Source: Trissonchulus latispiculum (taxonomy: Eukaryota; Nematoda; Enoplea; Enoplida; Ironidae). From it: a stretch of DNA of 64,000 nt. The notes beneath the pieces were generated by a model. It was not told the origin of the DNA and searched no databases. It saw only the letters and a list, made by a program, of their open reading frames with translations. Shown in pieces: positions 13,746-51,150 of the stretch. The stretch's first letter is position 1. Each line of letters starts with the position of its first letter. The stretch lies in assembly GCA_030248195.1 (NCBI GenBank), contig JASAND010028376.1, positions 1-64,000 of the forward strand, given 5' to 3'. The position numbers were made by a program, and so were the translations under genes.

Positions 13746-13811
13746 ACTAGAAGTGCAAACTACTCCTTCAGACTGTATTGAAGGCGGCTAATAGTAACCA
13801 AGCAAATATGG

Positions 13812-15286: not shown

Positions 15287-15539
15287 TTAGGCTGCCAGTC
15301 TTCCACCGTTGTCTTTTCTTAGTTCGGCTCTTTTCATTTTTCCGCTTTTGTCATTATAATAGTGTATTTGTTTTTCCTTTGTGATTTCTCAGATTTGATC
15401 TCCTGGTATTTCTATTGCGTTAGTTATTTAGTTGTTCTTTTACGTATTCCATTTTAACTTGTTGTTCTATTTTAACTACTTGTACGTGCTTAATTGTCGA
15501 ATTCTCATTTTGTATAATTTTCCTCCGACTTTTATATAA
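15287..15539 (+). other. 5' leader of retroelement 1
   Basis: Sequence between the 5' LTR and the first ATG. It begins TTAGGCTGCCAGTC. The usual TGG-starting primer-binding site is not obvious directly after the LTR, so the primer tRNA cannot be named. Confidence 0.5.
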
Positions 15540-18133: not shown

Positions 18134-18134
18134 A

Positions 18135-18866: not shown

Positions 18867-19441
18867 TTTAAATTAAATAAGATTTGCTAGGTTCGTGAGT
18901 GTGCGCATACTAGACTCGTAGACTCGACCCTAAACTCGCTATAACTTCCTAACCGACTACAGCAGGCGCCGGCAGTCCAATTTCGGTACCGGGAGTTTAC
19001 TGTTTTTATATCAAAATTACAAAATTGACAAAAAGCATAGAAAGATAATTTTATAGTTTACAGCAAATAACATTTCCAGAGATGTGAACAAAAGCACAAA
19101 CAATCATTACCTCACCCAAAAATAAAAGAAGAAATCCCAAAGTTTGGAGGGCTTTGAAACCCCCGATCAAAATACCTGCTAAGAGTAAATCCCCCGTTGA
19201 GCACAAAAGGGCAGGTGAAAAATGCAACCACTCCAAAGGAGAACTTTGACAAGACTGACTTTTCACTAACTTTCAATGGCGGACATAAAATTAGCTAGGA
19301 ACCGAGGTTCCTACACAGAAGGACAATTTTACGTTTATCGTTCATAAAGATAACACTGCATTTTGAGTGATTTAGATGAAAATCAAGGAGAATAACCGAA
19401 AATAGTTCACACCAGGCCCCTGTAAATGGGGAGCAAGCTAA
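18867..19441 (+). other. Gag-pol gap of retroelement 1
   Basis: 575 nt with stops in all frames, between ORF3 and the open pol frame. The direct repeat AAAAGCCCTGGGGAAA lies at each end (18813-18828 region and 19440-19455). The gap could be an insertion between copies of that motif or an intron: CTTTCAG at 19475-19481 resembles a nematode splice acceptor and CAGTGTAAAG near 18831 a weak donor. Neither reading is proven. Confidence 0.5.
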
Positions 19442-22400
19442 AAGCCCTGGGGAAACCAACCCTCGGGTACTGGGCTTTCAGCAGTAAGCACTGGGGAAAC
19501 CCCAACGTCAGATCTGGCGGTCACCACTCAGGTGGTGCCGGAAACTCCCACCTTCACGAAGAAACCGCCCAGTATTGTGATCACTGGGGCGTCTCCACCC
19601 AAGCGACCGAGTTCCCTGAAACCTTGGTCAGCAGCGAACAACCCTAGTCGGAGAGAGCTAACGGAAACGGACGTCTCAGATGACGAATCTGGTACCTCGG
19701 GCCTCACGTTAGCGCCCGTTGAGGTTCACGAGTCTGGAGCTACTCTAGTAACACCTTTGAAATTGCGCAAAGACACTCAGGGTGAGTGGGAACCGGTAGA
19801 AAAAGGGACAAAACAGCCAAAAGTATCGGTACAATCCGGTATACCTACCCGTAATAGGTTCGCCCTATTGGAAACCCCAGAGTATGCTGTACTTCGACAA
19901 GGTTGGGCTAATGTTAGCCAGGCTGTCCAACAAGCTCAGGTGGTCGCCCAGTCTATCGGCGAACAGATTCAACAACTGGCTGTTAACGTAACGTCCGTGA
20001 CGGACCAGGTATGCCAGTCTACTCAGAGTTTTGAACAACTATTGGCTGAGTTTGTCCAGAAGGATTATGAACGGACCTTAGAACTCCAACAGAAGGGAAC
20101 CTTCCGCGAACCAAATCAACCTATCTGGTCGGAGAACCCACCGCAACCCCGCAAGGGTAGACGGGGGATTCGCCTCAACGACCCGAATGAGATCATTGTG
20201 CTAGATAGCACACCTGTAGACGAGGATCCGGCGCCTGTGGCGCAGGAAGAGACTTCCACTAATAAGGACGACGCTCCAGTACTATCACAGGAAGAGGTCG
20301 TAACAACCTCTGGAGCACCCTCCCCATCTGAAAACTTAGTTGAGCGCGACACGACTACTGTAGGTCAGCAAGACTTCACTCCTACGGATTTGGGGGACAA
20401 GTATGGAATATGGGACTTGGAACAGCAACTTCGTGCTTCTCTCAGCCCTTGTCAACGAGTCGAGCTTAACCTAGATGCAGAAGCTAGTGACAACGAGGAC
20501 GATAGTGGGCAACCCACAGCGCAGACTAAGCACCTAAACAGAGCGGTCCTATCGGTACTGAATGGGACGGTACCATTTTTCGTCTCACAATGTACCCATA
20601 TTGCCTTGAAGAAAAGCCCGTACGTGATTGTGGAGGTCAGAGGCATCAAGACATTAGCCCTGTTGGATACAGGGGCCAACATTTGCCTGATGTCCAAGCA
20701 TTTTTTCGATCAACTTAATAGCAACAAACGTTTACATCTGGATGAGACGAAAGCTACGGAGGTGGCTACGGCTGCCGACGACCGGAGCCTAGCAATATTG
20801 GGTACCACCAAGATTGCCTACAAATTACATGGTGTTCGGTATGAGTATACTTTTAATGTTACAAATAGTTTACAACAAGATTTTATCATTGGCTATGACT
20901 TTCAGGCAGATCATAACTGGGTGATTTTTCCCCATCAACACCTTCTTTTATGCGACAGGAAGAAGGTACCCCTGCTGACCCCAGGAGACCTGCAGGCGTT
21001 AGCTAATCGATTTAGTATAGCCGTGTCATGTACGGTATATTATTGTATGCGGGAAACGTGCAAATTACCTCCTAGGTCGGAAGTTATGGTACCGGTTCGT
21101 TGTTGGCTTGGGGGTGCTGTAAAGCCAGCTATCAATCAGGCAGTCGTGTTTGAACCATCAGAAGAAGTCCTGGAAGACTATGAAGTCTACCCAGTGCCTG
21201 GAGTCTTGGAAGTATCTTCTCAAGTCAACTACATCAAGGTCTATAATCCCCTGGATCGAACGGCACAATTGCCAAAGGGGCTACCCCTCGGACAAGCGGA
21301 GCCAGTCACTACGGTCACGGAACGGCAAGGGTTTCGGTATGCTGCCGAGTTAGGTGTTAATTTTGCACAAGCGAACCCTCATCTGGCTAGTTGGGCGACC
21401 CATCCAGCCACCCGCCTGAACGAGAAAGAGCTGCGTCACGCCCTTGAGGAGGTCGAGCAATTGGAGCCGTATCACCCAGGTGATACGGTCCCTATGGTTA
21501 ATAGTGTGGGTAATGAGATACCAGTTCCAAGGTGGGTCGACCCCACAGTGTGTGTCGCTGAGGCTGACCAGAACTGGGGTTACGAGGAACCCCCGGCATT
21601 GACGGAAAAAGGCCTCCAGGCCTTTAACGATATGCATTATTCCGCTGACGAAATGACGTCACAACCTATGCCATCCTTAGAGGAACGTCAACAATTCATT
21701 GACGAGAATGTAGATTTTGATTCTATGTTCCTTGACGACGAAGGTAAAGCGAAATTAAGGGATATATTGGTCGAATTTTATGACGTGGTCGCCAGACCGG
21801 GTAACCCGGGACGGACCAAAGTGGATCAACATGTGATTGATACGGGTAAGGAAGGACCAGTCAAGGGTAGATCTTATCGGTATAATCCCAAAGATAAAGC
21901 GGAAATCGAGAAGCATATACGAGCAATGCTGGATGAAGGGGTTTGCTCCCCCTCTACTAGTCCTTGGTCTTCCCCGTGTATCTTGGTCGGCAAGAAGGAT
22001 GGGACCACACGTTTAGTCATTGACTACCGACGGCTAAACAAGATTACGAAGAAGGACAATTACCCGCTGCCCAAAATTGACGAAATTTTGGATCAACTCC
22101 AAGGGGCAGTGATATTCTCGACTATCGATCTAGCGGCTGGGTACTGGCAGGTAGAGGTCTACCCAGAACACAGGGAGAAAACGGCCTTTGTGTCCCATAT
22201 GGGCCTCTTCCACATGAATGTCATGCCGTTCGGGTTGTGTAACGCTCCCGCAACATTCCAACGTTTAATGGAAAAGGTTTTGACGGATTTACCTGTATAT
22301 ATTGACGATGTATTGATTCCTTCTGCAGATCAAGAGGCCCATTTAACGATGATCAGGTCGACCCTGACTCGTCTGCGAGACAATGGCCTACGTATTAAAC

Positions 22401-23566
22401 TTAAGAAATGTTGTTTTGCTCGTGAATCCGTTCCCTTCTTGGGCCACTACGTGGGACGGAACGGCATTAGTGTGGACCCGGACAAGGTTAAGGCTGTGTC
22501 TCAGCTTAAGCCACCAAAGGACGTGAAGGGCATTCGATCTTTTCTAGGAATGTGTGGTTATTATAGAAGGTTTGTGCTTAATTATGCTAAAGTGGCCGCC
22601 CCTTTAACGGACTTATTGAAGAAAGGGGTGCCGTTTGTTTGGTCTGAAGCCTGTCAACATGCTTTTGAGGAGCTGAAACGGCATTTGACTCAAGCTCCAG
22701 TGCTAGCCTTTCCCGATTTTGACAAAACTTTTTACGTGTCATCTGATGCCAGTAAGCAGGGTTTTGGTGCCATTTTGGAGCAACAATTTTCGGTGCCACG
22801 TAGCGCCGATAAACCGAATGGACCACGGGTGCTACGTGAGCGACCAGTCGCCTATGCCAGTAGAACCCTGACCCAGGGCGAGAAGGGTTATTCCGCGACG
22901 GAGATGGAAGCGTTTGCAGCTTTATGGGGTTGTCAGAAATTTAGGCATTACCTGTCATGTAAACAGTTTATTCTCCGAACCGACCATCAAGCAGTCAGGG
23001 ATCTACTGAATAATATCAAGGCCTTGGGTCAAGGTAAGCTTGCTAAGTTTGCTCTTAGTATGTTAGAATTTGATTTTACGGTGGAATATCGGCCGGGGCG
23101 CGAGAATGTGGGTCCTGATTGCCTGTCAAGATTGGATCCAATTGATGAGCCTGAAGATAGCGAACACGAAGCAACAGCGGCTATGTACCCACCAGAAGTG
23201 TTCGCCTTGACGGCGGCACTTCCTGCGCCTCCTACCCTGCTTACTTGGAAACGAGAACTTCGCGACGAAGAGGAATTTGCAGTTTTATTGGATTTCTTGG
23301 AACAGAAGAGGCTGCCAACCAACCGACAAGAAGCACAAGAGTTAAAGAAGTTACGGTCTACCTTTTTCATTAGAGACGGGGTGTTATATCGCTGGCATCT
23401 GAATAAACATGCAGAACGTAGAGGGCTACCCTTCCCTACTGTGGTAGTGCCTAAGGTCCAGCGAGAGCAGCTCTTGCAGGAGGCTCACTCTGATTTCACG
23501 ACGGGTGGTCATCGGGCCCACCAAAATGCTATTGCATACGTCAAAATTCTCTGCGCAGAAAGCTAA
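19442..23566 (+). CDS. pol: Retroelement 1 Pol: protease, RT, RNase H, integrase N-terminus
   Basis: Open from 19442 with no ATG until deep inside, so it is probably made by splicing or recoding. Counting residues from 19532: a Ser/Pro-rich and helical lead; an aspartic protease with LLDTGANICLMSK (Asp379); an RT with LVIDYRRLNKITKKDNYPLP, FSTIDLAAGYWQVEV, MPFGLCNAPATFQR and YIDD (923-926); an RNase H with SSDASKQGFGA (Asp1072), a Glu in SATEMEAF, RTDHQAV and GPDCLSRL; a connection; then the HH half of the integrase zinc finger (EAHSDFTTGGHRAH). Every catalytic residue looked for is present. The frame ends in a 242-bp hairpin element at 23539, which separates the rest of integrase. Confidence 0.9.
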   Translation, partial: KPWGNQPSGTGLSAVSTGETPTSDLAVTTQVVPETPTFTKKPPSIVITGASPPKRPSSLKPWSAANNPSRRELTETDVSDDESGTSGLTLAPVEVHESGATLVTPLKLRKDTQGEWEPVEKGTKQPKVSVQSGIPTRNRFALLETPEYAVLRQGWANVSQAVQQAQVVAQSIGEQIQQLAVNVTSVTDQVCQSTQSFEQLLAEFVQKDYERTLELQQKGTFREPNQPIWSENPPQPRKGRRGIRLNDPNEIIVLDSTPVDEDPAPVAQEETSTNKDDAPVLSQEEVVTTSGAPSPSENLVERDTTTVGQQDFTPTDLGDKYGIWDLEQQLRASLSPCQRVELNLDAEASDNEDDSGQPTAQTKHLNRAVLSVLNGTVPFFVSQCTHIALKKSPYVIVEVRGIKTLALLDTGANICLMSKHFFDQLNSNKRLHLDETKATEVATAADDRSLAILGTTKIAYKLHGVRYEYTFNVTNSLQQDFIIGYDFQADHNWVIFPHQHLLLCDRKKVPLLTPGDLQALANRFSIAVSCTVYYCMRETCKLPPRSEVMVPVRCWLGGAVKPAINQAVVFEPSEEVLEDYEVYPVPGVLEVSSQVNYIKVYNPLDRTAQLPKGLPLGQAEPVTTVTERQGFRYAAELGVNFAQANPHLASWATHPATRLNEKELRHALEEVEQLEPYHPGDTVPMVNSVGNEIPVPRWVDPTVCVAEADQNWGYEEPPALTEKGLQAFNDMHYSADEMTSQPMPSLEERQQFIDENVDFDSMFLDDEGKAKLRDILVEFYDVVARPGNPGRTKVDQHVIDTGKEGPVKGRSYRYNPKDKAEIEKHIRAMLDEGVCSPSTSPWSSPCILVGKKDGTTRLVIDYRRLNKITKKDNYPLPKIDEILDQLQGAVIFSTIDLAAGYWQVEVYPEHREKTAFVSHMGLFHMNVMPFGLCNAPATFQRLMEKVLTDLPVYIDDVLIPSADQEAHLTMIRSTLTRLRDNGLRIKLKKCCFARESVPFLGHYVGRNGISVDPDKVKAVSQLKPPKDVKGIRSFLGMCGYYRRFVLNYAKVAAPLTDLLKKGVPFVWSEACQHAFEELKRHLTQAPVLAFPDFDKTFYVSSDASKQGFGAILEQQFSVPRSADKPNGPRVLRERPVAYASRTLTQGEKGYSATEMEAFAALWGCQKFRHYLSCKQFILRTDHQAVRDLLNNIKALGQGKLAKFALSMLEFDFTVEYRPGRENVGPDCLSRLDPIDEPEDSEHEATAAMYPPEVFALTAALPAPPTLLTWKRELRDEEEFAVLLDFLEQKRLPTNRQEAQELKKLRSTFFIRDGVLYRWHLNKHAERRGLPFPTVVVPKVQREQLLQEAHSDFTTGGHRAHQNAIAYVKILCAES

Positions 23567-23780
23567 CCTTAAGTACCCCACGACAGGCTAGTTCGTGCAT
23601 GCTAAGCTAACCCGGTGTAGGTGACAACTGTTAAGTTAGCCTTAGCTGAAAGCTATTAAATGCACTATGCAAGCTAAGGCTAGCTGACCAGTTGTCACCT
23701 ACACTCGGTTAGCTTAGCATGCACGAACTAGCCCGTTGTGGGGTACTTAAGGTTAGCTTTCTGCGCAGAGAATTTTGACG
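23539..23780. mobile_element. 242-bp hairpin MITE inserted in pol
   Basis: Terminal inverted repeats of about 92 bp with about four mismatches, starting CGTCAAAATTCTCTGCGCAG, so nearly the whole element folds back. TA lies on both sides. The flanks together read TGCA-TA-TGCA, a palindrome, so the apparent repeat continues 6 nt beyond the element. It splits the integrase HHCC zinc-binding domain between its histidines and its CxxC. Removing it under either TA or TGCATA duplication (244 or 250 bp) does not bring the two pol frames into phase, so another small indel is also present. Confidence 0.85.
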
Positions 23781-23781
23781 T

Positions 23782-24825
23782 ATGCATATGGCTAGCCTGG
23801 AAACAAAGTATTGGTGGCCCCGCATGTCTCAAGATCTAGAGGACTTCATCGCTCAGTGTAAGCCCTGTGCAAAATTTAATCAAGGGCCACGTAGACATCA
23901 GGCTACAATGCAGAATACGGTGGTGGTACGCCGACCGTTAGACGTCGTGGCTATGGATGTGATGCACTTCACACAGAAGGAGACCAACAGAGGTAACACA
24001 TGCGTACTGTGTATAGTGGACTACCTCACGCGATACGCGGAGGCTTTTGCTATGCCCAATGAGCGGGCGGAAACTACTGCGTATTGGTATTTTAATGGCT
24101 TCGTAGCCCGGTGGGGCGTCCCTGCCCGAGTCCTGACAGATCAGGGACCGAACTTTATGTCTGTTTTCTTAAGAGCCTTGGTGGACGCTAGCGGCTCTGA
24201 GCGACTCAGAACTACTGCATATCACCCTCAAACGAACGGGGTAGTGGAACGCTTCAATCGGACAATACGTAGCCTGGTAGCCAAGTACGTGAACTGTTTT
24301 CAGTCCGATTGGGACGACTATTTGCCGTGGGGACTGTCCATTTACAGAGCAACGATTCACAGTGCCACGAAGGAGACACCTCACTTCTTGATGACAGGTA
24401 GAGACTACCGATATCCATTGGATAATTTCTTTCAGCTTCCTGGTGAGGAAGGTACCATCCAGAACTATAGCGACGCACGTAGCCAGCTACTGGCCCGGAT
24501 GAACGAAGCTTGGCAGTTGGCGCATGAAGCTTTGCAAGAGGCGGCATTAGTTAACAAGGAAAGGTACGACTTGAAAGCATCACCGGTTGAGTATAAGCCA
24601 GGTACCCTGGTTATGCTTAATATTGAGAACAAAAACGTACCTACAGGTTTGAGTAAGAAGTTACGGCCTAAATACGTGGGACCTTATCGGGTATTGGACA
24701 AGATTTCTGTAACGAATTATCGTATTGCTCGCACTAACGGGTTAAGTGACCCGGTGGTGGTTAACATCAATAGATTGAAGCCTTTTCAAGATGCCCCAGT
24801 CAAGTTGCCAGTCGTGACACTGTAG
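23782..24825 (+). CDS. pol: Retroelement 1 integrase core and GPY/F module
   Basis: 347 codons continuing Pol after the hairpin element. The C-x2-C of the zinc domain (QCKPCAKF) is followed by the DDE core: Asp59 in MDVMHF, Asp120 in LTDQGPNF and Glu156 in GVVERFNRT, with the usual 35 residues between the second and third. The C-terminal part contains RPKYVGPYRVLDKIS and INRLKPF, the GPY/F module of Ty3-like integrases. It integrates the cDNA, producing the 4-bp duplication. The ATG at 23782 lies at the hairpin border and need not be a real start; the natural protein is Pol. Confidence 0.9.
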   Translation: MHMASLETKYWWPRMSQDLEDFIAQCKPCAKFNQGPRRHQATMQNTVVVRRPLDVVAMDVMHFTQKETNRGNTCVLCIVDYLTRYAEAFAMPNERAETTAYWYFNGFVARWGVPARVLTDQGPNFMSVFLRALVDASGSERLRTTAYHPQTNGVVERFNRTIRSLVAKYVNCFQSDWDDYLPWGLSIYRATIHSATKETPHFLMTGRDYRYPLDNFFQLPGEEGTIQNYSDARSQLLARMNEAWQLAHEALQEAALVNKERYDLKASPVEYKPGTLVMLNIENKNVPTGLSKKLRPKYVGPYRVLDKISVTNYRIARTNGLSDPVVVNINRLKPFQDAPVKLPVVTL

Positions 24826-25935
24826 GTAACCTACAGTGTACGTAATTTGCAGCATTAGTTTCTGTAATAGGCCTTATGTAACGCAAGGGCCCTTGTACCT
24901 GTATAATAATGCGTGTTCATTTTTCTTTTAGGGACGTCCTATTTTTGTATTACCTAGGGTTTTAACTCTAACATTTGGTGTTGGCATCATTCGTGTTACA
25001 TAACCCTTGGAATAGGGTAGGGCTTAAATTTATTTTGGGGCCTCCTTTACGATTAATTAGTTTCGGTATAAAATGGGGTTTACTGTTTCTTATCTAGTTT
25101 TCTAATTCTTTAAACTTATGGCTGTAAAATAGGGCCATAAGTTTTCTTCCCTTTCTATTACCTACCCTAACAGGGGGATTTTCTCACTCTCAATTTTACT
25201 TTCAAATTTACCTATGGGGGTTTTCTCTTAATTCAACGGCATTGTCTTTCGCTGTAAATTGTTAAGGGGGCCCTATCATATCTTTCCGTCTATATAGTGT
25301 ATGCATTAGTGTATACACTGGGTGCGTGTGTGTAGGTGTGCTTTTAATCTGTGTGTGTGTGTGTGTGCAGTGCTTTTCTCCCTTTACGTAGGCTAACTAT
25401 AGGTAGGTCACCCTCTCTTGTGTGTGTAGTTTTTCTGTTCCTTTTTCCATCTTTTTCTATCACGCCTATCATGCTTTCACTTTCTGTTAGTTTTTGCACT
25501 TTTTCTGAGGCTTATTTTAGATTCTAGTGGCTGCGTGATTGTTTGGTCGGGGGATTTCAGTGGACGGGCACATGAGCCTGTCAGCTGGAAGCTATTGCAT
25601 GGGGATTTTTCTTACAGAACTTGGTTATGAGATAGTCACAATAAGGCTACCTTGTTGTGCTCATTTGCCTGGTCCACTGAAGATAGGGTCATTAGTATAG
25701 GCCAACGCTTGCTTTGCCACATGTTAACCGTGTGCTGCTTTTATAATTTCAGATTTAATTTGCGTGTGATTTAATCTGCTACATTACGCTTCTTGCGGTA
25801 TTCTGGACAACGAACAATCATTAGTCAATCTCGATCGGACCATTCATTATTTGCGTCGGACGATCAACTAACTGCTTGTGAATAATTTGGTGAAGCCTGC
25901 TCAACCAACTGGGATACTTGTGCTTGCCCTAGTTT
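24826..25935 (+). other. Non-coding stretch between pol and exonuclease ORF
   Basis: 1.1 kb, T-rich, without an ORF of note. It contains a GT microsatellite at about 25353-25368 ending in GCAG. Together with the lack of a shared frame, this suggests that the downstream protein is expressed from its own spliced or internally initiated RNA. Confidence 0.5.
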
Positions 25936-27465
25936 ATGGGCAATCAATTCGCCTTCCGGGTCCAGAAAGACTTTCAAGAAAGACAATCACCTGTCCCGAG
26001 AGATCCCGGAGACCTTAACGATTTGGACGAATACCCGATTCCCAATCAGCGATTTTGGGACGTTGTGACACTTATGGATAGACCAGAGGCAGAGAAGCCT
26101 CCTGAGGAGGAAATGGATCAACAGCCCGGTCCGAGTCAAGGACAGCAACAGAATTTTGATGTCACAGGCATTTTAGGAATTTCGACGACTCGCGCATCAG
26201 ACCTGCCAGCGACTGGCATGGCTGGTGGCGAGGCAGACCAACAGGTGCCCACTGGCGACCAGGGGTCCGCTGACGCGGATTCACAACAGGTGAAGGTTCT
26301 CTTGAAGCGAGCCGGTACCCCCGGCTTACCCAGTCCGGCATCAGTATTGTCCGACCCTGGCGATCAGTCTATTTTACCTACTCCCCCACCCCCTCCAGTG
26401 AGTGAACTACAGCCTGGCCCGAGCCAGGCTGCGATCAGTGCCAGCCGGTCCATTCAGAATTTACTAGACCCGATGACAAATCCCAGTCCTCTGCACAGAA
26501 CCGCGACGGTTCCTGAGGGGCTCAACCTTTTAGGACTCGCGGCCTCGTCGGCCTTACAGCAGGAAGGGCAGCAACAAGCCGCGTCGCCGGCTCAGATGGA
26601 GACTTCAGATAAGGAGGAAACCTCCTCACAGCTCGAGCGCGACGCCAGAGCACGGGCAGGCGCCGACTATGAGGATGTGTCAGATGAGGAAAAGGACTCG
26701 GAGGATTTGTTTTCAGAGGAAAACCAACCGGCTCATGGGGAGGATAATGCGGCCTCCGATGACATTCAGGTCCTGGAGGAAGTCCAGGGAGATGCGGAAC
26801 CGGTAGTGGCCCAACAACAAGGTATGGATATTGACCAGGCAGTTGCTGCTGTGGCCAAGGCAGCCATCGCAGGGGGCTATATGGTCCCACCGGCTCAGGC
26901 AGGTGTGGTCCCTCCAGTTCCGCGACTTCGCCCTATAGCGACGGAGTTAGACCGGTTGGACCCGTTTCGCAGGGAGGACTACGAGCGACTCGAGGTCCAC
27001 TTGCAGGTGTACACGGACGCGCTACTACGCCATCGCCAGTTCGGTGTTGAGGCACTAGGGGAGGAGTATGAAACAGCAGCCCTAGCCTTGGGGGCCATGC
27101 TGACGGAGCAACTGACCGGACTGCCGGCCCCGCGTCCAAATTTCGCCGAGATCCGACATGATAACGACAACGAGAATACCTTTGTGATCGACTCACTGGG
27201 TCGCTTCCTCTATTATTTACCGGACCTGATTACTCTCTTAGGTGACGCCCCTCTGGTGGCTTTCGACGTCGAAGGGGGTAATGATATCCAGTTTGCAGTA
27301 CCACAGGATGGGACGATTACCATGCTTCAGTTCATGGGCCCTGTAGGCCAAGTCTCGAGCGTGCCGTCGACCGGTGACCTTCGTGATCATGGTAGAGTAC
27401 ATTTTGGCACAGCTGAAGGAATTCGGACCGTTTCTCCAGCTGCTGGAGCTATTAACGGATTCTAG
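25936..27465 (+). CDS. Retroelement 1 ORF4a: acidic protein ending in exonuclease motif I
   Basis: 509 aa from an ATG at 25936. Residues about 1-320 are Pro/Gln/Asp/Glu-rich and probably disordered. From about 335 a folded region begins (TELDRLDPFRREDYERLEVH), leading to FVIDSLGRFLYYLPDLITLL and PLVAFDVEGG, where Asp444 and Glu446 form the D-x-E of motif I in DEDD 3'-5' exonucleases, followed by a second strand ITMLQFMG. The frame then runs out. The rest of the domain continues one base out of phase in the overlapping ORF (open from 27347), so a +1 shift or a one-base lesion lies at about 27350-27380. Homologous to retroelement 2 at 57505-58073. Confidence 0.75.
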   Translation: MGNQFAFRVQKDFQERQSPVPRDPGDLNDLDEYPIPNQRFWDVVTLMDRPEAEKPPEEEMDQQPGPSQGQQQNFDVTGILGISTTRASDLPATGMAGGEADQQVPTGDQGSADADSQQVKVLLKRAGTPGLPSPASVLSDPGDQSILPTPPPPPVSELQPGPSQAAISASRSIQNLLDPMTNPSPLHRTATVPEGLNLLGLAASSALQQEGQQQAASPAQMETSDKEETSSQLERDARARAGADYEDVSDEEKDSEDLFSEENQPAHGEDNAASDDIQVLEEVQGDAEPVVAQQQGMDIDQAVAAVAKAAIAGGYMVPPAQAGVVPPVPRLRPIATELDRLDPFRREDYERLEVHLQVYTDALLRHRQFGVEALGEEYETAALALGAMLTEQLTGLPAPRPNFAEIRHDNDNENTFVIDSLGRFLYYLPDLITLLGDAPLVAFDVEGGNDIQFAVPQDGTITMLQFMGPVGQVSSVPSTGDLRDHGRVHFGTAEGIRTVSPAAGAINGF

Positions 27466-29908
27466 TTTACAAGCCCGTTGGGCTTCGGTGGACATCAAAG
27501 CTGATGCCTTACGGTTGGCTCGGGCCTACGGCCTTCAGGGCCTGGAACACCGCCTGGTCGAGGTCCAGGAATATTGGATTCATGCTTGGAACCTGCGACG
27601 ATCTAGTCAGTATCGTGACTTGAATTACCAGACTGATTTGCGACCACCGGACCCATATGTGCGGGATCGCTATGGGTTTATCACTGGCACAGGAGCTGGG
27701 TTGCGCAGGATGGCTGGTATGTGTTCTGTTCCTAATCCAAAGTTGAAGCGTTGTTGTACTAAGGGTATTCCGGTAGTGCCCCACGAAGGGGATGTGCGCT
27801 ACGCACTAGCCGATGTGGACGCCACCTATCATATACTGCGCCTTGTTCGGGAGTTATTGGATGCACGAGACAGCGAACTGGCGACTCAGTTGTCTACACT
27901 GCATAATGCCTACGGACCGGAAGTGGAAGCGGCATTGGAACACGAGCGAAGAAAAGGTCATGGGCCTCATGCGGGCGTACGGCACATGACACCCCTTCAG
28001 GGTCGTCCAACCCCAGACCAGGTACAATTTCAACAGATGATTCATGAACGCCTGCTACCTACGCATGATGTTCCTGATGCGGACCTACCAAGGCAGCGAC
28101 CGTTGTGGTCGTTTAGTTTTCATATGGGACCAAATATCAATGTGGCCCACACGCTACGGGAACCTATCTATCAACGATTTCTGGTTTTTATGCGAGCATG
28201 GACCAGATGGCGCTTCCAGCCTCGTGTCCTACCGGCCATCGACTGGCGTCGGGTGAGGGTTTCGCAGGATGGCAGATATCATGCTATGGATCCTGACAGA
28301 CCACAAGATCAGGTGGAATTGCAACCCAATGCGGAGTTGGTGGAACAGCTGAATGCGGCGGGAGCCCGGAGGGTACAGGACTACATCCCTTCGGACGGTG
28401 AAGGTTTCCCGGAGGAGGGTGAAACTCCAGCCTCGGCTGCTTTGGTGTTGCCTGACCGCGACGGTAAGCACAAGGAGGTACAAATTGTTCCACATAAGCC
28501 ACCAGTGTCGAGACAGCGGGGACCTCCTCGCTCACCACCATTGGACCAACCTAGTACCAGTCAGCAACGGGACGCGCGACGCGAGTCCCGGCAGAGGCAG
28601 ACTTCGCCGGAATTTTTGCGGTTACCGAAATCTCCTCCCAGGTCCCGACCCCCACAACGAGTGTATACCAATAGACGGTATTATGAACAGTCCGCTCCGC
28701 CTACGTCTCGTCAGCAACAGCGAGCTCGGTCACAGTCAGACGCGTCAAAAACCCGTAGCCAGCCAGCAGTGACTGCTGAGAGCCGGTTCGGCGCGAAGCC
28801 ATTGCCGACATGGAGAGACCCAGCGGAAATGTATCGACGAGCTCAAGCTCAGCCGCGGCCCCAACCGGGTCCGGTGTGGGCACATCCGGACCATGAATAT
28901 ATGCCACCTATACCGGATGAGTATTTAAGACAACAAGAGCGACAGGATCGGCTAGAGGGCGTGACGCCTTCTACCTCCCAACAAGCCCGTGAAGCGGAAG
29001 CAACACCACCTAAAAGACACCGGGCAGTTTCATCTGAAGAGGAGCGAGAACTGCGGGAACTTATGAAGTGCTTCCCACATATCCAGGATCCGATGGACCT
29101 GCTGGATGTTGATCCGAGCATAATGGAAGCAGTGCGGATAGTGCAGCGAGAGGAGCGGGCCAAGGCGTCAGCCGTGACGGCACCGCCAGGTCTAAGTCAG
29201 GTTCCGGCTCCCCCAGTAATTCAAGCTGCCCCAGTCACGGTGGCGGCACCCACCGCCGGACCTTCGGGACTGCAGGCCCAAGGAGCCGCTCCTATGGAGG
29301 TTCAACAGATTCAGCAACCAAGCGGTCTGGAACAACCGCTCTTGCAATTGATGCCATCAGCAGAAGTTTTGCATCAGATCGGATTGACTCCAGCAATCTA
29401 TGAAACTATACCTCCTCAAGTATGGCCCATGTTCAGTCATTTTGTACAGGCACTAACTCATCTAACGGCGAATGGCCGTATCGGACCCTCACGCCATATT
29501 TTTAATAGTGTGGCTATGTACCATCTGGCTCCAACGCCTAACCCTCAACCTACGGGACCTAACGACCGATTTATAGTGCCGGAACACGTGGCAGTAATGG
29601 ATACACGACAAACAGCAGAGACGCGCCGAACCGGGACGACCCAGTTTCGCCAATTCATTGTGGCGCCTATGTTAGATCGCACAGCGGCGGGATTTGACCC
29701 GTCCGCCTACTTGATTGCCATTGAACAAGGGATGCCAGTGCATTGGCAGGTCGTGGAAGCTTACATGCCTGGCCTGCCGTGGTTTCGCCAGGTTATGATA
29801 TGGCGCGACGCCAATAACGTGGTCCACCTGTCACCCTTACATCTAGTGGCTACGGTCAACCCATTAATACCGGGGGATGAATACTTCAGTCAGGTGAGTA
29901 TAGGATAA
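27347..29908 (+). CDS. Retroelement 1 ORF4b: exonuclease motifs II-III plus long disordered protein
   Basis: Open from 27347. Residue numbers count from GTG 27374. SVDIKADALRLARAYGL gives Asp44 of motif II, and GLRRMAGMCSVPNPKLKRC then RYALADVDATYHILRL gives the Tyr143-x3-Asp147 of motif III (DEDDy type). With D444/E446 of the preceding ORF all four metal ligands are present. The relatives I would expect are WRN/EXD1/Egalitarian-like exonuclease domains; this is judged from motif spacing only. A second conserved region follows (PLWSFSFHMGPNINVAHTLR), then about 350 residues rich in Ser/Arg/Pro/Gln, then a conserved C-terminal domain (GFDPSAYLIAIEQGMPVHWQ). Retroelement 2 has all three. The ORF ends through CAG|GTGAGTATAG, which looks like a splice donor. 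Confidence 0.75.
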   Translation, partial: AKSRACRRPVTFVIMVEYILAQLKEFGPFLQLLELLTDSSLQARWASVDIKADALRLARAYGLQGLEHRLVEVQEYWIHAWNLRRSSQYRDLNYQTDLRPPDPYVRDRYGFITGTGAGLRRMAGMCSVPNPKLKRCCTKGIPVVPHEGDVRYALADVDATYHILRLVRELLDARDSELATQLSTLHNAYGPEVEAALEHERRKGHGPHAGVRHMTPLQGRPTPDQVQFQQMIHERLLPTHDVPDADLPRQRPLWSFSFHMGPNINVAHTLREPIYQRFLVFMRAWTRWRFQPRVLPAIDWRRVRVSQDGRYHAMDPDRPQDQVELQPNAELVEQLNAAGARRVQDYIPSDGEGFPEEGETPASAALVLPDRDGKHKEVQIVPHKPPVSRQRGPPRSPPLDQPSTSQQRDARRESRQRQTSPEFLRLPKSPPRSRPPQRVYTNRRYYEQSAPPTSRQQQRARSQSDASKTRSQPAVTAESRFGAKPLPTWRDPAEMYRRAQAQPRPQPGPVWAHPDHEYMPPIPDEYLRQQERQDRLEGVTPSTSQQAREAEATPPKRHRAVSSEEERELRELMKCFPHIQDPMDLLDVDPSIMEAVRIVQREERAKASAVTAPPGLSQVPAPPVIQAAPVTVAAPTAGPSGLQAQGAAPMEVQQIQQPSGLEQPLLQLMPSAEVLHQIGLTPAIYETIPPQVWPMFSHFVQALTHLTANGRIGPSRHIFNSVAMYHLAPTPNPQPTGPNDRFIVPEHVAVMDTRQTAETRRTGTTQFRQFIVAPMLDRTAAGFDPSAYLIAIEQGMPVHWQVVEAYMPGLPWFRQVMIWRDANNVVHLSPLHLVATVNPLIPGDEYFSQVSIG

Positions 29909-30218
29909 CGTGGGGGGGGAATGGGGGGGGGGTGCAGACCCCCCCCAGACCGACAAAAAACGGGTAGACCCCCTCAGCGAAAAGGAAAAAAGGGCAGACC
30001 CTCTCGTCCAGAAAGGAAAAAAGGGCAGACCCCTCAGCGATTTTCACTGAAAATTGGTAATTTTTTAGCAAATTTTAGCGGTTTTTTAAAAAAATTTCTT
30101 AAAAATCGCTAAAAATTGTCTTTCTTATACTAATTTTCGGACAAAAACGTTAAAGATTCGCAAGTTTTGCTAATTTCGGGGCAGACCCCGATGAAATTTC
30201 GGACTTTTTCAGGGGTAG
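29909..30218 (+). repeat. Low-complexity insert with GGGGTAGACC/GCAGACCCC motifs
   Basis: About 310 bp between ORF4b and the next open frame, made of G-runs, C-runs and repeated GGGCAGACCC / GGGTAGACC phrases around an AT-rich centre. No coding sequence. A possible intron (donor at 29894, C-tract plus CAG at 30242-30253), but phases do not fit simply. Confidence 0.5.
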
Positions 30219-30752
30219 ACCAATCGCCGAGGTCGGGGTAGACCCCCCCCCAGAATCCGACCCCGTGTTAATGTGACGATGACCTTGGTGCTGTCCCCCG
30301 AAGTCCAGCAGGAAGCCGAGCGAGTTCGCGACGAACTGGATGTTTTACTGCTTCCCCCAGGTCCTACGCTACACCAGCGAGGCCAAATTTATCGGGGTTC
30401 TCGTGCGGCCGGCATGCCTATGCCCTTGTCCGCGGCAGTCCCATGGGGAGTGCGCACTAACTACGCCCCTCGACCTCAGACGCAGCATATGGCCACGCTT
30501 GTAGCGACTACACCTTCATCTGCTCCGGCCATGCTGGTTCCACCAATTCCGCCCGCCCCAATTTTTCGACCTGTTCCATCTCAAGGTACGGCTCATCCAA
30601 CGCCGGTGACCACGGCCTCGTCCAGTTATCCACCACGGTTCGGAGCGCCTCCGACTGGACCCTTACCTTCGAGACGGAACGATCGACGGGATAGTTCTAC
30701 CTCATCTCGGGCATCTGGTTATGCAGGGCCCCCACCTAAGAAATGGGCGTAG
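30219..30752 (+). CDS. Retroelement 1 ORF5a
   Basis: Open from 30219, first ATG at 30279. It begins LVLSPEVQQEAERVRDELDV, a short helical region, then Pro/Ala/Ser-rich sequence ending PPPKKWA at a TAG (30750). Position and the first helix match retroelement 2 at 54699-55268. The same frame stays open beyond the TAG into the Arg/Ser-rich part, so this is probably the first section of one protein. Confidence 0.55.
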   Translation, partial: TNRRGRGRPPPRIRPRVNVTMTLVLSPEVQQEAERVRDELDVLLLPPGPTLHQRGQIYRGSRAAGMPMPLSAAVPWGVRTNYAPRPQTQHMATLVATTPSSAPAMLVPPIPPAPIFRPVPSQGTAHPTPVTTASSSYPPRFGAPPTGPLPSRRNDRRDSSTSSRASGYAGPPPKKWA

Positions 30753-31367
30753 GATCGTGACGGTCGCGGAGCCTTGGGCGATGACTACGGCGCTTCAGCA
30801 TCTAGAGACGCAGGGTATCAGCGGAGGGATCGGTCGGACTCACGCGATTCCAACTATTTTACCTGTAGAGACGGTCTTGGACATGAATCCCGGTCTAGAG
30901 ACAGGAAAAGACGGGACGAGGGAGATCAAAGACCATCCACTAGCTACCAGGAATGGAGGCCGCTGCGGCCTACCCAGTCTCAAGGACCCCAGTTCAAGGG
31001 TCGAGGGCGCCCTACGGAACCACCCTCAAGAGAGCATGGATCAGTTTTCTCACCACGAACAGCGATGGCCCAGGGGCCCCAGATCCCTGAAGATCAGCGA
31101 CCTGGTACTAAAGGGTACTGGCGGGCATCTTACAATTGGAAACCAGCATCCACCCCGGTGGAGTCGAGACGTCGCGACGACGACCGGTATAGTTCTTACC
31201 GTTCACGAGCATCTAGTCAGCAGCGCCAGGCCCGGGTTTATCCCGAGGACCCACAGCGTAAGAGAAAGACGACGCCACTGCCTCCGTTTGGGGTTCCAGC
31301 TACATATGAACAGGTTAGGGACGTTCAGCGTACACGAACAGCAGGAAATTTTCCATCATTTCATTAA
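30753..31367 (+). CDS. Retroelement 1 ORF5b: Arg/Ser/Asp-rich region
   Basis: Same frame as 30219-30752, after the in-frame TAG. Contains dense RDRSDSRDSN, SRSRDRKRRDE and RSRASSQQRQ stretches, reminiscent of RS domains of RNA-processing proteins. Retroelement 2 has a stronger version in the same position. Ends at an in-frame TAA at 31365. Likely a nucleic-acid-binding or protein-interaction region; the function is inferred from composition only. Confidence 0.55.
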   Translation, partial: DRDGRGALGDDYGASASRDAGYQRRDRSDSRDSNYFTCRDGLGHESRSRDRKRRDEGDQRPSTSYQEWRPLRPTQSQGPQFKGRGRPTEPPSREHGSVFSPRTAMAQGPQIPEDQRPGTKGYWRASYNWKPASTPVESRRRDDDRYSSYRSRASSQQRQARVYPEDPQRKRKTTPLPPFGVPATYEQVRDVQRTRTAGNFPSFH

Positions 31368-32144
31368 ATTCTTCATGAGCAACATATTATCGCGAAACGC
31401 GACCAGTTTGGTAAGAATTTACTACACAATCACAGTGAGCCGGTTTACCCGCCATTCCAGTTGCTCCAGCCATACCCGGAACAGGTTGGCCACTTGGCAA
31501 CCCCGCCTCCAGCGGTTTATTGGCAGGATTTCTGGGGTAGATGGCAGGGACAACAACTCCCAGTAGCCATAGGCAGAGAAACGCCTCACCCGGCACTGGT
31601 GGCCTTTCGTCAGGTGGTGCTGCAATGGTTTGTTAATGTGAGTCAAACACCGGTGACTATGACTATGGAACTGTTGAGCCAACTGAAGCAGATGTTCCGT
31701 GAAGATCACCCTGACATGTACCAATATTTTGAGACCGGAGACCGTCGCACGCCAGATCGTTCTGGGTTTATTGCAACCTGGAAATTCAAAGAGATCGATC
31801 GTTCCCCGTATGAAGACCCAGAGCCAGAGGTGGAGATCTTCAAAGTGGTGAACTCCGCCGTGTGGGGTCACGCGGAGCTGCTCCGCCGATGTGTCCCGGA
31901 ATTAACACCTTATGCGCATGTCTTTTCTCGTCCAGCTTCGCGTGGTTTTCGAGATGTGTATTGTGCTGCGGTTCAGGAATTAGACCGCATGGAGGCGGTG
32001 CGGAGAGCTTTTTGGTACTGGTATCAACCACCTATGCAGGGTGTTCGCGCCGTGGCTCCACGGGAATTTTTGGTTCCGTATTTCCGCCAACATTGTAAGA
32101 ACTCATACATGCATACAGTTGAAGAGGGATTGCGTACGGATTAG
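31368..32144 (+). CDS. Retroelement 1 ORF5c: conserved middle domain
   Basis: Same frame continued after the TAA; no ATG is needed if read through. Contains VAFRQVVLQWFVNVSQTP, FIATWKFKEID and VNSAVWGHAELLRRCVPEL, which align with VALFRDEVLKWM, VWHSRWVIKDY and SSNARWATCLAMAALVPEL of retroelement 2. Ends at TAG 32142, after which the same frame stays open. A globular domain of unknown function conserved between two diverged elements. Confidence 0.6.
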   Translation: MLHEQHIIAKRDQFGKNLLHNHSEPVYPPFQLLQPYPEQVGHLATPPPAVYWQDFWGRWQGQQLPVAIGRETPHPALVAFRQVVLQWFVNVSQTPVTMTMELLSQLKQMFREDHPDMYQYFETGDRRTPDRSGFIATWKFKEIDRSPYEDPEPEVEIFKVVNSAVWGHAELLRRCVPELTPYAHVFSRPASRGFRDVYCAAVQELDRMEAVRRAFWYWYQPPMQGVRAVAPREFLVPYFRQHCKNSYMHTVEEGLRTD

Positions 32145-32972
32145 GAACCTGGGATTGTCTTCCCTATGCCGGAATATATTTATCAATATCGAAAGAGTGA
32201 TTTTGCGTGTCATGCGGAGGCGCTACGCTACATTACCCTTGACCCTAATCGTCTGGGCACCGAGATCAAGCTGGGGGTGCGACACCGCCTAGAGGTGGAA
32301 CCGTATTCCTTTGCAGTCGATTCGTGGCAGGGCGGCTATCAAGTGCGAACTATGTGCCGCATTCATTGGGATACCTTCTACCAGTCGGAGGAACTCCGCG
32401 AATACATGTTGCGTCATCCAGCGGCCCTCTACGGTGAAGCCTCGGGCGAGACGTTTTGGGGTTTTCGCCCGGCTCTGCCGGCACAGGTCATTGTGCGTGG
32501 AGTGGAGGATCTCCAACATGAGCAGTTTGATCAGTGGTTCCAGCGTGAGGCATGGTTTAGCGGTGCGTCTATCCATGGCACCTATTGGACCGTGATCCTT
32601 CTCTGGTTTACCCAGGGAGGACCCCAGGACTTCTATTCGGATTGGCAATCCCGGACTCCGCTCCCACAGGCGGAATACGACGAATTCATTCGGGTCATTC
32701 GGCGCCGGATTGAGCACGCACGGGAGAATTGGATGAACGGCAGAATGGCTCCGCCATTCTTCGCAGTGGATAATCCACCTACGGAGCTGCGAGCGGCTGC
32801 GCTGCGCATGCCGGTGAATCGCACAGGCGAATACATCGATGGATTGGCCCCGCCTGGACAGGAAAATAACGTCTACAGCCCTTGTATCTGCGTCGCCATC
32901 TTTGACCCTTCCGCCCCTCATCGTGCAGCTCTCCCAATCGATCGCCAGAGCCCGGTTTGGAACCGTTTCTAA
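32145..32972 (+). CDS. Retroelement 1 ORF5d: conserved terminal domain, unknown family
   Basis: Same frame again; an ATG at 32166 offers an independent start. It encodes a compact, Trp/Tyr-rich globular domain: HWDTFYQSEELREYMLRHPA, GETFWGFRP, HGTYWTVILLWFTQGGP, EFIRVIRRRIEHARENWMNG, APPFF and PGQENNVYSPCICVAIFDP. Retroelement 2 carries a clear homologue (52593-53567) with the same blocks, so it is under long-term conservation. It has no signal peptide or membrane segment and therefore does not look like an envelope protein. I do not recognise the family. Confidence 0.65.
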   Translation, partial: EPGIVFPMPEYIYQYRKSDFACHAEALRYITLDPNRLGTEIKLGVRHRLEVEPYSFAVDSWQGGYQVRTMCRIHWDTFYQSEELREYMLRHPAALYGEASGETFWGFRPALPAQVIVRGVEDLQHEQFDQWFQREAWFSGASIHGTYWTVILLWFTQGGPQDFYSDWQSRTPLPQAEYDEFIRVIRRRIEHARENWMNGRMAPPFFAVDNPPTELRAAALRMPVNRTGEYIDGLAPPGQENNVYSPCICVAIFDPSAPHRAALPIDRQSPVWNRF

Positions 32973-35167
32973 ACCGCTCCCCTACCCCCGGTTACTACCA
33001 GCGACTGGTGTAACTTTGCGTAATTAGCTCAACTTACCGCGACGGTGTAGTTGTAGCTTAAGTCCCTTTCCTATCACTATCGGCGGAGGTATCATTGTGA
33101 CGGCGGATGTATCATATCAGCGGCGGATGTATCATATCAGCGGCGGAGGTATCATTGTGACGGCGGACGTATCATTGTGACGGCGGATGTATCATACCAA
33201 CGGCGGAGGTCTCATATCATATCATATCATATCACGTTATCAATCCATCCTTCCAGCGGCGGTGTTATTTACTATCATATGCTATGCCATTTCATTTACC
33301 ATCATTGCCAATTTTCTGCCCTGAACCTCAATTCCTGACTACCTCTATTTTGGACTAATATCCCTGATTTGATTGCTCAATTATGAAGACGACCCTACGA
33401 TGACTTTTTCCAGAATTCTGATTCCCGATTGTGATTACCCGATGAAGACGATTTGCTCAATTTATGCCTCATTTCCCGATCCGTGCCATTCCAGCGATAT
33501 AGACGCTCTACTTCCCGATGAAGACGATTCCCATTTGGTGACTTTGAACTAGTTTATTTTTGCTTTAAATACAGATGTTTGCCTTTTTAATTTTTGTGTC
33601 GTATTTTTGTGGTATTCCTAACATTTAAAAACCTAACCTTTTTCCGAGCTATTCTAAATTTTAGAGTTTCTTTATTTATCTACTTACATTTTACCATTTT
33701 TCTTGAGTTTTTCCTATTTAAAACATTAGAAATTTTAACCATTTACTTAACATTTTACCATTTTCCTGGAGTTTTATTTTATAAATTAACCAAAATTTGC
33801 TGTATTTTGTAGTGATTTTGCCTGTGTTCTATGCATAATATTGCCTTTATATGTGATTCGTTGTACAGTTTTACATGTCATATTCGTATTTTGTCTGCTT
33901 TAATCACGTAACCAAAGTTATGTTCAAAAGTGTTACTAAAACCGGGTTTATTCTTTTCTTGCAGGTTTCCATTTCCATATTTTTATTAACGGGTTTTGAT
34001 TGCGGGTTTTCTGTCTTTTAACGAGTATTTTGTAACCTGACGCAACGTCAGAAGATGTGTGACGTACCAGCCATGTCCCTATTTGTACCCTTTACTGCCG
34101 CCACATTTTTATCAAAATTATTCTAAATATATACCTATGTCTTTTAGTTGTCCCAACGGTTCCTGTTCATATTTGTACCTGTTCTTTGATTTCTGTAAAA
34201 ATTTTATTGGTTAAATGTCAGTTTTGTTTCCCACCCCAGAGCGCCAAAGTAGTTCCCGAATTATATGCCCCCATTCTGTTTTAAGGCCTGCATGCGCGGT
34301 TGGGAGGATCTTCTCCAAAATTCTTCTTTTAAGGGACTTTCTATTCATATTTTAACCGGTGTTTCGTGTTTTTAGTAACTCTAAGACTCCATTTTAACCC
34401 CCTCCTAATTTAATTTACTTTATTTTTATAAGTACCACGAGGGTACTTGGGGACTCTCCGTACCCTTTTGGTCCTTTTTATACATGCTTAAGCATGTTTG
34501 GGGTTACTTTGTAACTCCTTTAATTTAATTTAATACTTATATTTTACTTAAAGATTCCACAAACTTACTCCTACTTACACGCGAAACACTGGGATTAAAT
34601 TCAATTCATTACCTATTCCTCTAAATTATTTTATTAATTATCTTTCGTCTTGCTAATTTTGCAGGAGATCCGTAGGGAACTGAGTTGGCGATGCGAGGCT
34701 AGGCCCCCACCCACCCAGCCGAAGATGGCGCACTCTAAGTTTAGCGGGAGGCTACCTCCGTACCCTAGTTTGAACAGACCCAGACGAAGCTGACATTTCG
34801 GTCCTTATTTTGTTTATTTGGTTTTCTGGTAATACAGGTACGAGATCCCCGCCGCTGCGGCTGGAGGATCATGGGTCGCCCATTCACGCACCTTCCCGTG
34901 GCATTAATATGGCAGTTCTCCATGCGTGTTTTTATGGCTGGTCTTCACTAGTCTTTTGACGCCATGTCATTTTTATTATGTTTATTACTTAGTCAAGTTT
35001 ACTATAGTTTCGTATTTTCGTATTTCTCTCTTGTATTTTGACTTACTTATGTACTGAGACCCATTTACCAAAATTCAGTCAAAAATTTTCACTGTTGGGT
35101 AAATTTCTTTCTTCTTTTCGGTTTATGTTGTCCCTCGCAGGAGCTCGGGCGGTAAGCCCTGGGGAGA
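32973..35167 (+). other. 3' non-coding region of retroelement 1
   Basis: About 2.2 kb without coding sequence, T-rich, ending in GTAAGCCCTGGGGAGA next to the 3' LTR. The purine tract GGGGAGA is the likely plus-strand primer site. Contains the 20-bp CGGCGG repeat at 33081. Confidence 0.7.
33081..33240. repeat. 20-bp tandem repeat CGGCGGANGTATCATNNNNN
   Basis: Seven units starting CGGCGG(A/T)GT or close variants, followed by ATATC pentamers. It lies 2 kb upstream of the 3' LTR and is non-coding. Confidence 0.85.
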
Positions 35168-36356
35168 TGTAATGTGTGTATGTTTTAGTGAGTTTATTTG
35201 AATGTGAGATTTTAGTAAGAGTGATAATTTTAGTGTGAAATGTGGTTTTGTGAAATAGTGTAGATTTGTGTTGAAATTGGTGTGAATTTGACTATTTTCT
35301 ATGTTAAAATATGTGGTGGTTTAGTCAGCCCACTTAGCTGCTAGGTGGCGCTGTTTGTCCTTTGAAGTTTCTCTGGATGCTCGCTGAGCATCCAGTTTGC
35401 AAAGGGGGTCTCAAATCCAGCCAATCAAAATTCACTAGGCATCTCTCTCAGCCTTCACTTTAAAAACCAGTCAGTTTTTAGCTTTTGTCTCTTTCGTGTG
35501 CTAGTGTGTGGTTAGTGTTTCCTTTACGCGCCTATTTTATTGTGTTGCCCTTTGCTCACTGGACTTCAGTTGCTGTGTAAGTGTAAGTTGGCGTGTGTTT
35601 CTTTTAATACATAGACTCCAAGGCGACCTTGTGAGTTGAATCAAAATTATTTAGTGGGTCAATCTAAAATTACTAGTGGTACTCTTTTGTGTGTAATTCA
35701 CCTTTTTAATCGGTAACTAATTTGGCTGTTTATTTTAGAAAGGGGTTTTAAGATGCCAAACCAAATAGATTAGTTAGCCGCGACGGCTTAGGGAAGTATT
35801 TGTGAGATATTAGTTTTGTTGAAGGGTGCAAACAATTGATTAATTCGTTTATGTAGACTGCTTTATTCATGCCATGCTTTTGTGTAACTATTCCTAGAGT
35901 GTACGTTTGTTTGAAATTCTTCTGTTTTGTAAGCTTTGTCGATGAATATTCTACTGCTAAAAATTCTTGATACTTATGTACTTTTCGGGAGTCTCTCCCC
36001 TGTTTAAATATAATTAAATGTGGTCTCAGTAGCTGAGCCAATAGGGTGTTTTAGTTAGGCTTCTGTTAGAATTGCATAGTTGGTAGGTAGGACTCTGAGT
36101 TATTTTCCAAGTCTAGGTAGGCTAATAATTTACTGAGTGTGTATTTAACTTAATCAAAGTTTCTTTAGTAGTCCAGTAGTAAGGCAGTCCTTCGTCCCTT
36201 TAGTTAGCTCCTTTAGTAATTCGTTAGGCTTATTTAATTCTTGGCGAGATCCTGCCCAGGTCGACTGGAACAAAAGTCTCCTCCAGGTTCGTCGTTTCCA
36301 TACGCGCACAGTTTCCACCCGTAAAGTTTGGTTGCCCTTACCCTTCCAACTTTACA
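35168..36356 (+). repeat. 3' LTR of retroelement 1
   Basis: 1189 bp, TGTAATG...TTTACA, about 99% identical to the 5' LTR. It is preceded by the purine tract GGGGAGA and followed by the GTAT target duplication. Confidence 0.95.
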
Positions 36357-43840: not shown

Positions 43841-43903
43841 ACTGAAAGTGCAAGCTACCCTTTCAGACTGTATTGAAAACGGTTAGCAATCAAGCAAATA
43901 TGG

Positions 43904-50880: not shown

Positions 50881-51150
50881 GAAATAACAATAATGAAGGG
50901 GGGAAGCGAGTGTTGTGCTGAACCCTCCCACGAGCGCCCCCTAGTGAGAATTTCCCCCAATCACGTAGCTCCCAAGTCACGAGGGGGGGGAACCCACCCA
51001 ATCCCAAACATACACGTTGGGGGAGCTACGTGACTTGCAAAGTTCTCCCAACCCAAGGTGATGACGATATAGAAAGCCTGACGGGTAGCTATGCTAGCTA
51101 CAGCCGCCAGCAAGGGAAAGGTTGACCGTGTGTCACCTTGATCCGTTACA
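48139..51150 (-). repeat. Probable 3' LTR of retroelement 2 (left edge uncertain)
   Basis: On the minus strand, AGCCCTTGGGAGA|TGTAACGG at 51163-51143 mirrors the retroelement 1 junction AGCCCTGGGGAGA|TGTAATGT, so the LTR starts at 51150. It runs to lower coordinates for about 270 bp and then into three tandem 910-bp units. The junction is found only once, so the units are internal repeats and not separate LTRs. The matching 5' LTR is off-window, so the end at about 48.1 kb is an estimate. Confidence 0.5.

What the first reader, a model, noticed from the sequence alone, without database searches (positions are those of the whole stretch)
27265..27815. DEDD-type 3'-5' exonuclease-like domain encoded by an LTR retroelement
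D-V-E, then D in DIKAD, then Y-ALA-D appear in order and at plausible spacing, with hydrophobic strands between them, in an ORF located between integrase and the 3' LTR. A proofreading- or RNA-trimming-type nuclease is not part of the standard Ty3/gypsy gene set. It might process element RNA or cDNA, or act against small-RNA silencing, since EXD1/Egalitarian-like relatives work with RNA; this role is inference.
Basis: partly seen in the sequence, partly recalled or inferred. Interest (0 to 1): 0.9.

Follow-up and report, generated by a model that had tools for sequence, protein, structure and literature searches.

The report
Exonuclease gene in giant retrotransposon
A very large jumping gene in a eukaryotic genome carries, besides its usual copying enzymes, a domain built like enzymes that trim nucleic-acid ends, in the same protein as a domain that resembles ADP-ribose-removing enzymes, and the related copies examined have kept the trimming site intact.

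Summary
Between integrase and 3' LTR of a 22.3-kb Ty3/gypsy-type element (14099-36356) lies a DnaQ/RNase D-like DEDDy exonuclease domain (27118-27946). In this copy a frame change near 27357-27365 splits it.

The domain belongs to a separate ORF3 of about 2,200-2,470 aa whose C-terminus is NADAR-like. Nineteen of 21 exonuclease places of this lineage have NADAR downstream. But 34 of 47 near-identical RT copies have neither listed, so ORF3 looks accessory.

DEDDy ORF3s are known from bdelloid LTR elements, and NADAR from brown-algal gypsy elements. I found no paper with both in one element, nor with such selection on the exonuclease. Activity, substrate and role are untested.

The parts
14099..36356 (+). 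whole element 1: Ty3/gypsy-type LTR element, 22,258 bp, flanked by GTAT on both sides
   Evidence: LTR pair; termini and 4-bp flanking duplication
14099..15286 (+). 5' LTR
   Evidence: 99.1% identical to 35168-36356; 8 mismatches and 3 gap columns
35168..36356 (+). 3' LTR
16292..18133 (+). gag-like ORF with a weak CCHC zinc-knuckle match
   Evidence: Pfam zf-CCHC_6 E 0.0062, below its cut-off
19442..23566 (+). pol ORF: protease-like, reverse transcriptase, RNase H
   Evidence: Pfam RVT_1 4.4e-31, RT_RNaseH 5.4e-25, Asp_protease_2 0.0002
23779..24825 (+). integrase ORF (separated from pol in this copy)
   Evidence: Pfam rve 1.8e-08, Integrase_H2C2 2.5e-08
25933..27465 (+). ORF3, first open piece: low-complexity N-terminus and exonuclease motif I (FDVEGG at 27262-27279)
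27118..27357 (+). exonuclease domain, first part (motif I)
   Evidence: tblastn with a natural open copy, 97.5% identity
27365..27946 (+). exonuclease domain, second part (motif II D 27503-27505; motif III Y 27800-27802 and D 27812-27814)
   Evidence: tblastn, 96.9% identity; positions read
29330..30431 (+). ORF3 conserved domain 2, unknown fold, split in this copy (29330-29902 and 30270-30431)
   Evidence: dN/dS 0.020-0.125 in open copies
31578..31940 (+). ORF3 region whose model weakly resembles dsRNA-binding domains (lead only)
32049..32882 (+). NADAR-like C-terminal domain of ORF3
56897..57714 (-). exonuclease domain of the second element (frame-broken)
52596..54313 (-). C-terminal part of ORF3 of the second element, with the NADAR-like domain

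Best explanation
The region is the DEDDy (DnaQ/RNase D-type) 3'-5' exonuclease domain of ORF3, an accessory protein of a giant Ty3/gypsy-type element. SHOWN: the fold, invariant catalytic residues in the copies examined, strong purifying selection, fixed position downstream of pol, co-inheritance with a NADAR-like C-terminal domain, and the existence of near-identical pol copies with no ORF3 domain listed downstream. INFERRED: in open copies it is a two-metal, Mg2+/Mn2+-dependent enzyme that removes nucleotides from 3' ends, most likely of RNA. INFERRED, LESS SURE: it serves the element as an RNA-processing or counter-defence factor (trimming host small RNAs aimed at the element, or cleaning modified 3' ends of element RNA), with NADAR stripping ADP-ribose adducts, rather than as an obligatory part of reverse transcription. 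My odds: exonuclease fold 0.97; active nuclease in open copies 0.85; RNA as main substrate 0.65; counter-defence role 0.4. The window copy itself is broken.
Against: No activity was measured. Pfam scores are below the curated cut-off (about 13-14 bits against 23.6), 9 of 19 members did not match at all, and the sequence profile found no DEDD enzyme in the PDB. The window's second element has Phe for the motif-III Tyr. The structural list does not separate RNA from DNA enzymes: WRN and DNA polymerase I exonuclease domains also match. Copies were chosen for open frames, which favours low dN/dS. The 34 of 47 figure rests on capped lists and could include nested, cut or masked copies. No expression data.
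Confidence: 0.65

Rival explanations
1. Proofreading or cDNA editing: the exonuclease removes mismatched or blocked 3' ends during reverse transcription, which allows a 22-kb RNA genome, much as nidovirus ExoN is thought to do (recalled).
For: Element of 22.3 kb. WRN and polymerase I exonuclease domains are among the matches. The domain sits just after integrase.
Against: 34 of 47 RT copies at least 97% identical have no exonuclease listed downstream, so this RT seems to work without it in cis. It is a separate ORF from pol. A flavi-like RNA virus of about 40 kb is reported to lack a known error-correcting mechanism (PMC11287256, title and start of abstract in a listing only).
Confidence: 0.15
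2. A catalytically dead DEDD domain kept as an RNA-binding module, like EXD1 or Maelstrom (described as inactive derivatives in PMC5408684).
For: Egalitarian and Exd1 are among the structural matches. Tyr is lost in the window's second element.
Against: All four acids and the Tyr are invariant in 20 of 20 copies over pairs as low as 20% identity, which is not expected if only binding were kept.
Confidence: 0.1
3. A captured host gene carried as a passenger with no function for the element.
For: Near-identical pol copies without it exist. [quoted passage not shown]
Against: dN/dS 0.03-0.10. Several diverged lineages with matching domain order, and largely congruent domain trees: 14 of 17 splits shared exonuclease/domain 2, 16 of 17 domain 2/C-domain, 13 of 17 exonuclease/C-domain.
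Confidence: 0.05
4. Self-restraint: a mut-7-like factor that feeds silencing of the element (raised in PMC5408684).
For: mut-7 is a DEDDy nuclease and Nibbler, which trims small RNAs (recalled), is the top structural match.
Against: Many open copies (27 of the rows lie in open frames of 2,000 aa or more) are hard to square with strong self-limitation; the paper itself notes that such elements would be out-competed.
Confidence: 0.05

Closest known systems
DEDDy ORF3 of bdelloid rotifer Juno and Vesta LTR retrotransposons (Rodriguez et al. 2017, PMC5408684; passages)
   Same: RNase D-like DEDDy domain in an extra ORF downstream of pol in an LTR element
   Different: There DEDD is reported changed to DEED, three of the four lineages carry dUTPase, and the ORF3 variation examined (env-like, GDSL-like) looked neutral. 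Here DEDD is intact, no dUTPase was found in pol, selection is strong, and ORF3 ends in a NADAR-like domain.
Terminons / Athena retroelements of bdelloids (PMC6431247, PMC5408684; passages)
   Same: giant retroelements with DEDDy among several accessory ORFs
   Different: Penelope-like RT, no LTR integrase; here a Ty3/gypsy-type LTR element
Dada DNA transposons with a DEDDy exonuclease domain (PMC3706591; passages)
   Same: mobile element with all four DEDD residues
   Different: DDE transposase, domain inside the transposase
Ectocarpus Gypsy lineage with NADAR in Pol, and oyster Tx1 LINE ORF1 (PMC12477816; passages)
   Same: NADAR domain in a retroelement
   Different: NADAR at the N-terminus of Pol or in a LINE ORF1, and no exonuclease is mentioned in the passages seen; here C-terminal in a post-integrase ORF3 with an exonuclease
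Nidoviruses with NADAR (PMC9503650; passages) and ExoN (recalled)
   Same: exonuclease plus ADP-ribose-processing domain in a large RNA-based genome
   Different: unrelated replication; ExoN is DEDDh-type (recalled), here DEDDy; a parallel, not kinship

Membership tests
DEDDy (DnaQ-like, RNase D group) exonuclease domain | motif I D-x-E, motif II D | tested here: met
   20 of 20 domains, 16 of 16 ORF3s, overlapping sets, both window elements
DEDDy (DnaQ-like, RNase D group) exonuclease domain | motif III Y-x3-D | tested here: met
   20 of 20 and 16 of 16 and window element 1; exception: Phe for Tyr in window element 2
DEDDy (DnaQ-like, RNase D group) exonuclease domain | DnaQ/RNase H-like fold | tested here: met
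   [not shown]
DEDDy (DnaQ-like, RNase D group) exonuclease domain | four acids meet in one metal site | tested here: inconclusive
   No coordinates returned. Residue positions (D49/E51 in strand 45-51, D128 in helix 125-136, Y227/D231 in helix 222-243) fit the known order.
DEDDy (DnaQ-like, RNase D group) exonuclease domain | metal-dependent 3'-5' exonuclease activity | not testable with these tools
   needs protein
Pfam PF01612 DNA_pol_A_exo1 (sequence family) | score at or above the curated cut-off | tested here: not met
   10 of 19 members match, best E 0.014; scores seen 13.3 and 13.7 against 23.6. Filed by fold and motifs, not under this model.
Bdelloid Juno/Vesta DEDDy-bearing LTR elements | DEDDy ORF downstream of pol in an LTR element | tested here: met
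Bdelloid Juno/Vesta DEDDy-bearing LTR elements | dUTPase in pol | tested here: not met
   no dUTPase among Pfam matches of the pol and integrase ORFs at E <= 1; so not filed as a member
Bdelloid Juno/Vesta DEDDy-bearing LTR elements | grouping with bdelloid ORFs in a tree | not tested
   bdelloid sequences were not fetched
Ty3/gypsy LTR elements | LTRs and pol order PR-RT-RH-IN, short target duplication | tested here: met
NADAR domain | Pfam PF08719 curated cut-off | tested here: not met
   9 of 13 proteins given match, best E 2.5e-05, best 25.0 bits against 35.1
NADAR domain | YbiA/NADAR fold | tested here: inconclusive
   [not shown]
NADAR domain | E and K seven residues apart (E43/K50 of the Phytophthora enzyme, PMC11543638, section read) | tested here: met
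   E42 and K49 invariant in 20 of 20, same spacing
NADAR domain | third catalytic acid (E125/D171 position) | tested here: inconclusive
   a nearby Glu in some lineages (YGEASGETFWG), Lys in others (YGKASTDPWWG)

The most novel reading that the evidence does not exclude
ORF3 is a self-contained counter-defence module of a giant retrotransposon, convergent with large RNA viruses: a DEDDy exonuclease that trims host silencing RNAs or modified RNA 3' ends, joined to a NADAR-type hydrolase that strips ADP-ribose from nucleic acids, possibly with a dsRNA-binding segment, shared with or lost by ORF3-less sibling elements that keep nearly the same polymerase.
Probability: 0.25. Interest if true: 0.88.

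Novelty: new variant of a known kind. Interest (0 to 1): 0.64.

Why it matters
It shows that the DEDDy capture seen in bdelloid elements is not a rotifer oddity if the host is not a bdelloid (734-Mb assembly; host not identified), and that the captured enzyme is under strong selection, which the 2017 work on bdelloid ORF3s did not find. The pairing with a NADAR-like domain suggests that some retroelements face ADP-ribosylation or RNA-end-based defences, known so far mainly for RNA viruses and phages. Copies with and without ORF3 but with near-identical polymerase offer a natural comparison.

Tried and rejected

Rows left out: one search used 89 of the 151 exonuclease matches (lineages A-C and fragments) against all 150 RT rows. 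One search used the first 21 exonuclease rows plus 3 fragments, the first 47 of 150 RT rows (each at least 97%), and the NADAR rows except those of more distant lineages and a second fragment of one place. By eye, no left-out contig would change a count. Two of the 19 exonuclease rows share one NADAR place (C11216). For the dN/dS, 16 pairs: 9 unsaturated, 1 at dS 2.69 (0.189), 6 saturated.

Full report
OBSERVATION. Motif I lies in ORF 25933-27465, the other two in ORF 27347-29908. A natural open relative aligns to 27118-27357 and then to 27365-27946, so the frame changes in between. I did not read across it; the two pieces were searched apart and open copies were used for the rest.

ELEMENT. 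LTRs at 14099-15286 and 35168-36356 are 99.1% identical, with 8 mismatches and 3 gap columns, so the insertion is young. GTAT flanks both ends. Protease-like, RT, RNase H and integrase matches in that order make it Ty3/gypsy-type. The integrase frame, ORF3 and other parts are broken in this copy. A second related element runs on the minus strand from about 52.6 kb to the window end (RT 51% identical) and has the same order: pol, exonuclease, domain 2, NADAR-like domain.

COPIES. The window is contig C19247 of a 733.8-Mb, 21,732-contig assembly. The exonuclease piece gave 151 matches (150 of 536 candidates scored, so a lower bound), and a distant member gave 143 (140 of 631 scored). By my count 27 rows lie in open frames of 2,000 aa or more without stops. 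Sixteen ORF3s aligned are 2,178-2,467 aa, two of them cut by the locus end. The exonuclease begins about 430-710 residues in.

SELECTION. Of 16 pairs, 9 are unsaturated, with dN/dS 0.028-0.096; one at dS 2.69 gives 0.189; six are saturated. Along ORF3 in five pairs, the exonuclease has 0.023-0.096, domain 2 0.020-0.125, the NADAR region 0.020-0.106, the three linkers 0.084-0.345. Copies were picked for open frames, which biases downward, but the contrast between domains and linkers within the same copies does not depend on that.

ORF3 AS A UNIT. Domain trees agree largely: exonuclease/domain 2 share 14 of 17 splits, domain 2/C-domain 16 of 17, exonuclease/C-domain 13 of 17, with two deep clades, and the window holds one element from each (element 2 is 92% identical to the L028 lineage). 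RT lies 4.4-4.9 kb before the exonuclease in 29 of the 35 pairs found among 150 RT rows. NADAR follows in 19 of 21 exonuclease rows, 15 of them at 3.67-3.70 kb.

ORF3-LESS SIBLINGS. Of the first 47 RT rows (each at least 97% identical to element 1), 34 have neither exonuclease nor NADAR listed downstream. For 10 of these, on the minus strand, the contig leaves 16 kb or more of room. The lists are capped, but copies of this lineage rank first in them. If it holds, ORF3 is dispensable in cis, which speaks for an accessory role and against obligatory proofreading.

MECHANISM. Shown: fold, residues, selection, linkage. From family knowledge: such domains remove nucleotides from 3' ends with two metal ions. 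Inferred: RNA is the likelier substrate, because most of the top matches act on or bind RNA; the role is RNA processing or counter-defence, with NADAR acting on ADP-ribose adducts. Rivals are proofreading, a dead RNA-binding domain, a passenger, or self-restraint.

COMPARISON AND NOVELTY. DEDDy ORF3s are described for bdelloid Juno and Vesta and for Terminons (PMC5408684, PMC6431247; passages), and a DEDDy domain for Dada transposons (PMC3706591; passages). A 2019 paper already calls the DnaQ-like domain a well-known accessory domain of LTR elements, citing that work (PMC6338049; passage). NADAR in gypsy Pol and LINE ORF1 is in PMC12477816 (passages), NADAR in nidoviruses in PMC9503650 (passages). 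The paper searches listed no paper that pairs the two in one retroelement; subscription journals are largely outside that library. Verdict: new variant of a known kind.

Noticed in passing
52596-64000 (-): Second related LTR element on the opposite strand, running off the window end, with its own frame-broken exonuclease and NADAR-like end; tblastn places suggest that its integrase-exonuclease spacing is shorter than in open relatives.
   Followed up: partly
23533-23786: Inverted repeat, arms 115 nt, 94% complementary, 24 nt apart, exactly where the pol and integrase ORFs of element 1 are separated.
   Followed up: no
29330-30431 (+): Second conserved globular region of ORF3, with no Pfam family; dN/dS as low as that of the exonuclease (0.020-0.125).
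   Followed up: partly
[not shown]
   Followed up: partly
own genome, e.g. C20528, C14237, C20654: Near-identical RT copies with no exonuclease or NADAR listed downstream: possible shorter ORF3-less sibling elements.
   Followed up: partly
15287-15310: The sequence after the 5' LTR does not begin with TGG, so a usual tRNA primer-binding site is not evident.
   Followed up: no
33061-33239: Array of 20-bp repeats (CGGCGGAGGTATCATTGTGA-like) between ORF3 and the 3' LTR.
   Followed up: no
48139-50889: Three head-to-tail copies of a unit of about 920 bp, 98-99% identical.
   Followed up: no
12840-13787 (-) and 42926-43882 (-): Two related UDP-glucuronosyltransferase-type exons (Pfam UDPGT 4.4e-29 and 1.3e-27) either side of element 1, within a wider duplicated stretch.
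   Followed up: partly
L013-L025, exonuclease domain: A conserved CC...G...PH stretch before motif III in one deep clade and absent in the other; possibly a metal or structural site.
   Followed up: no
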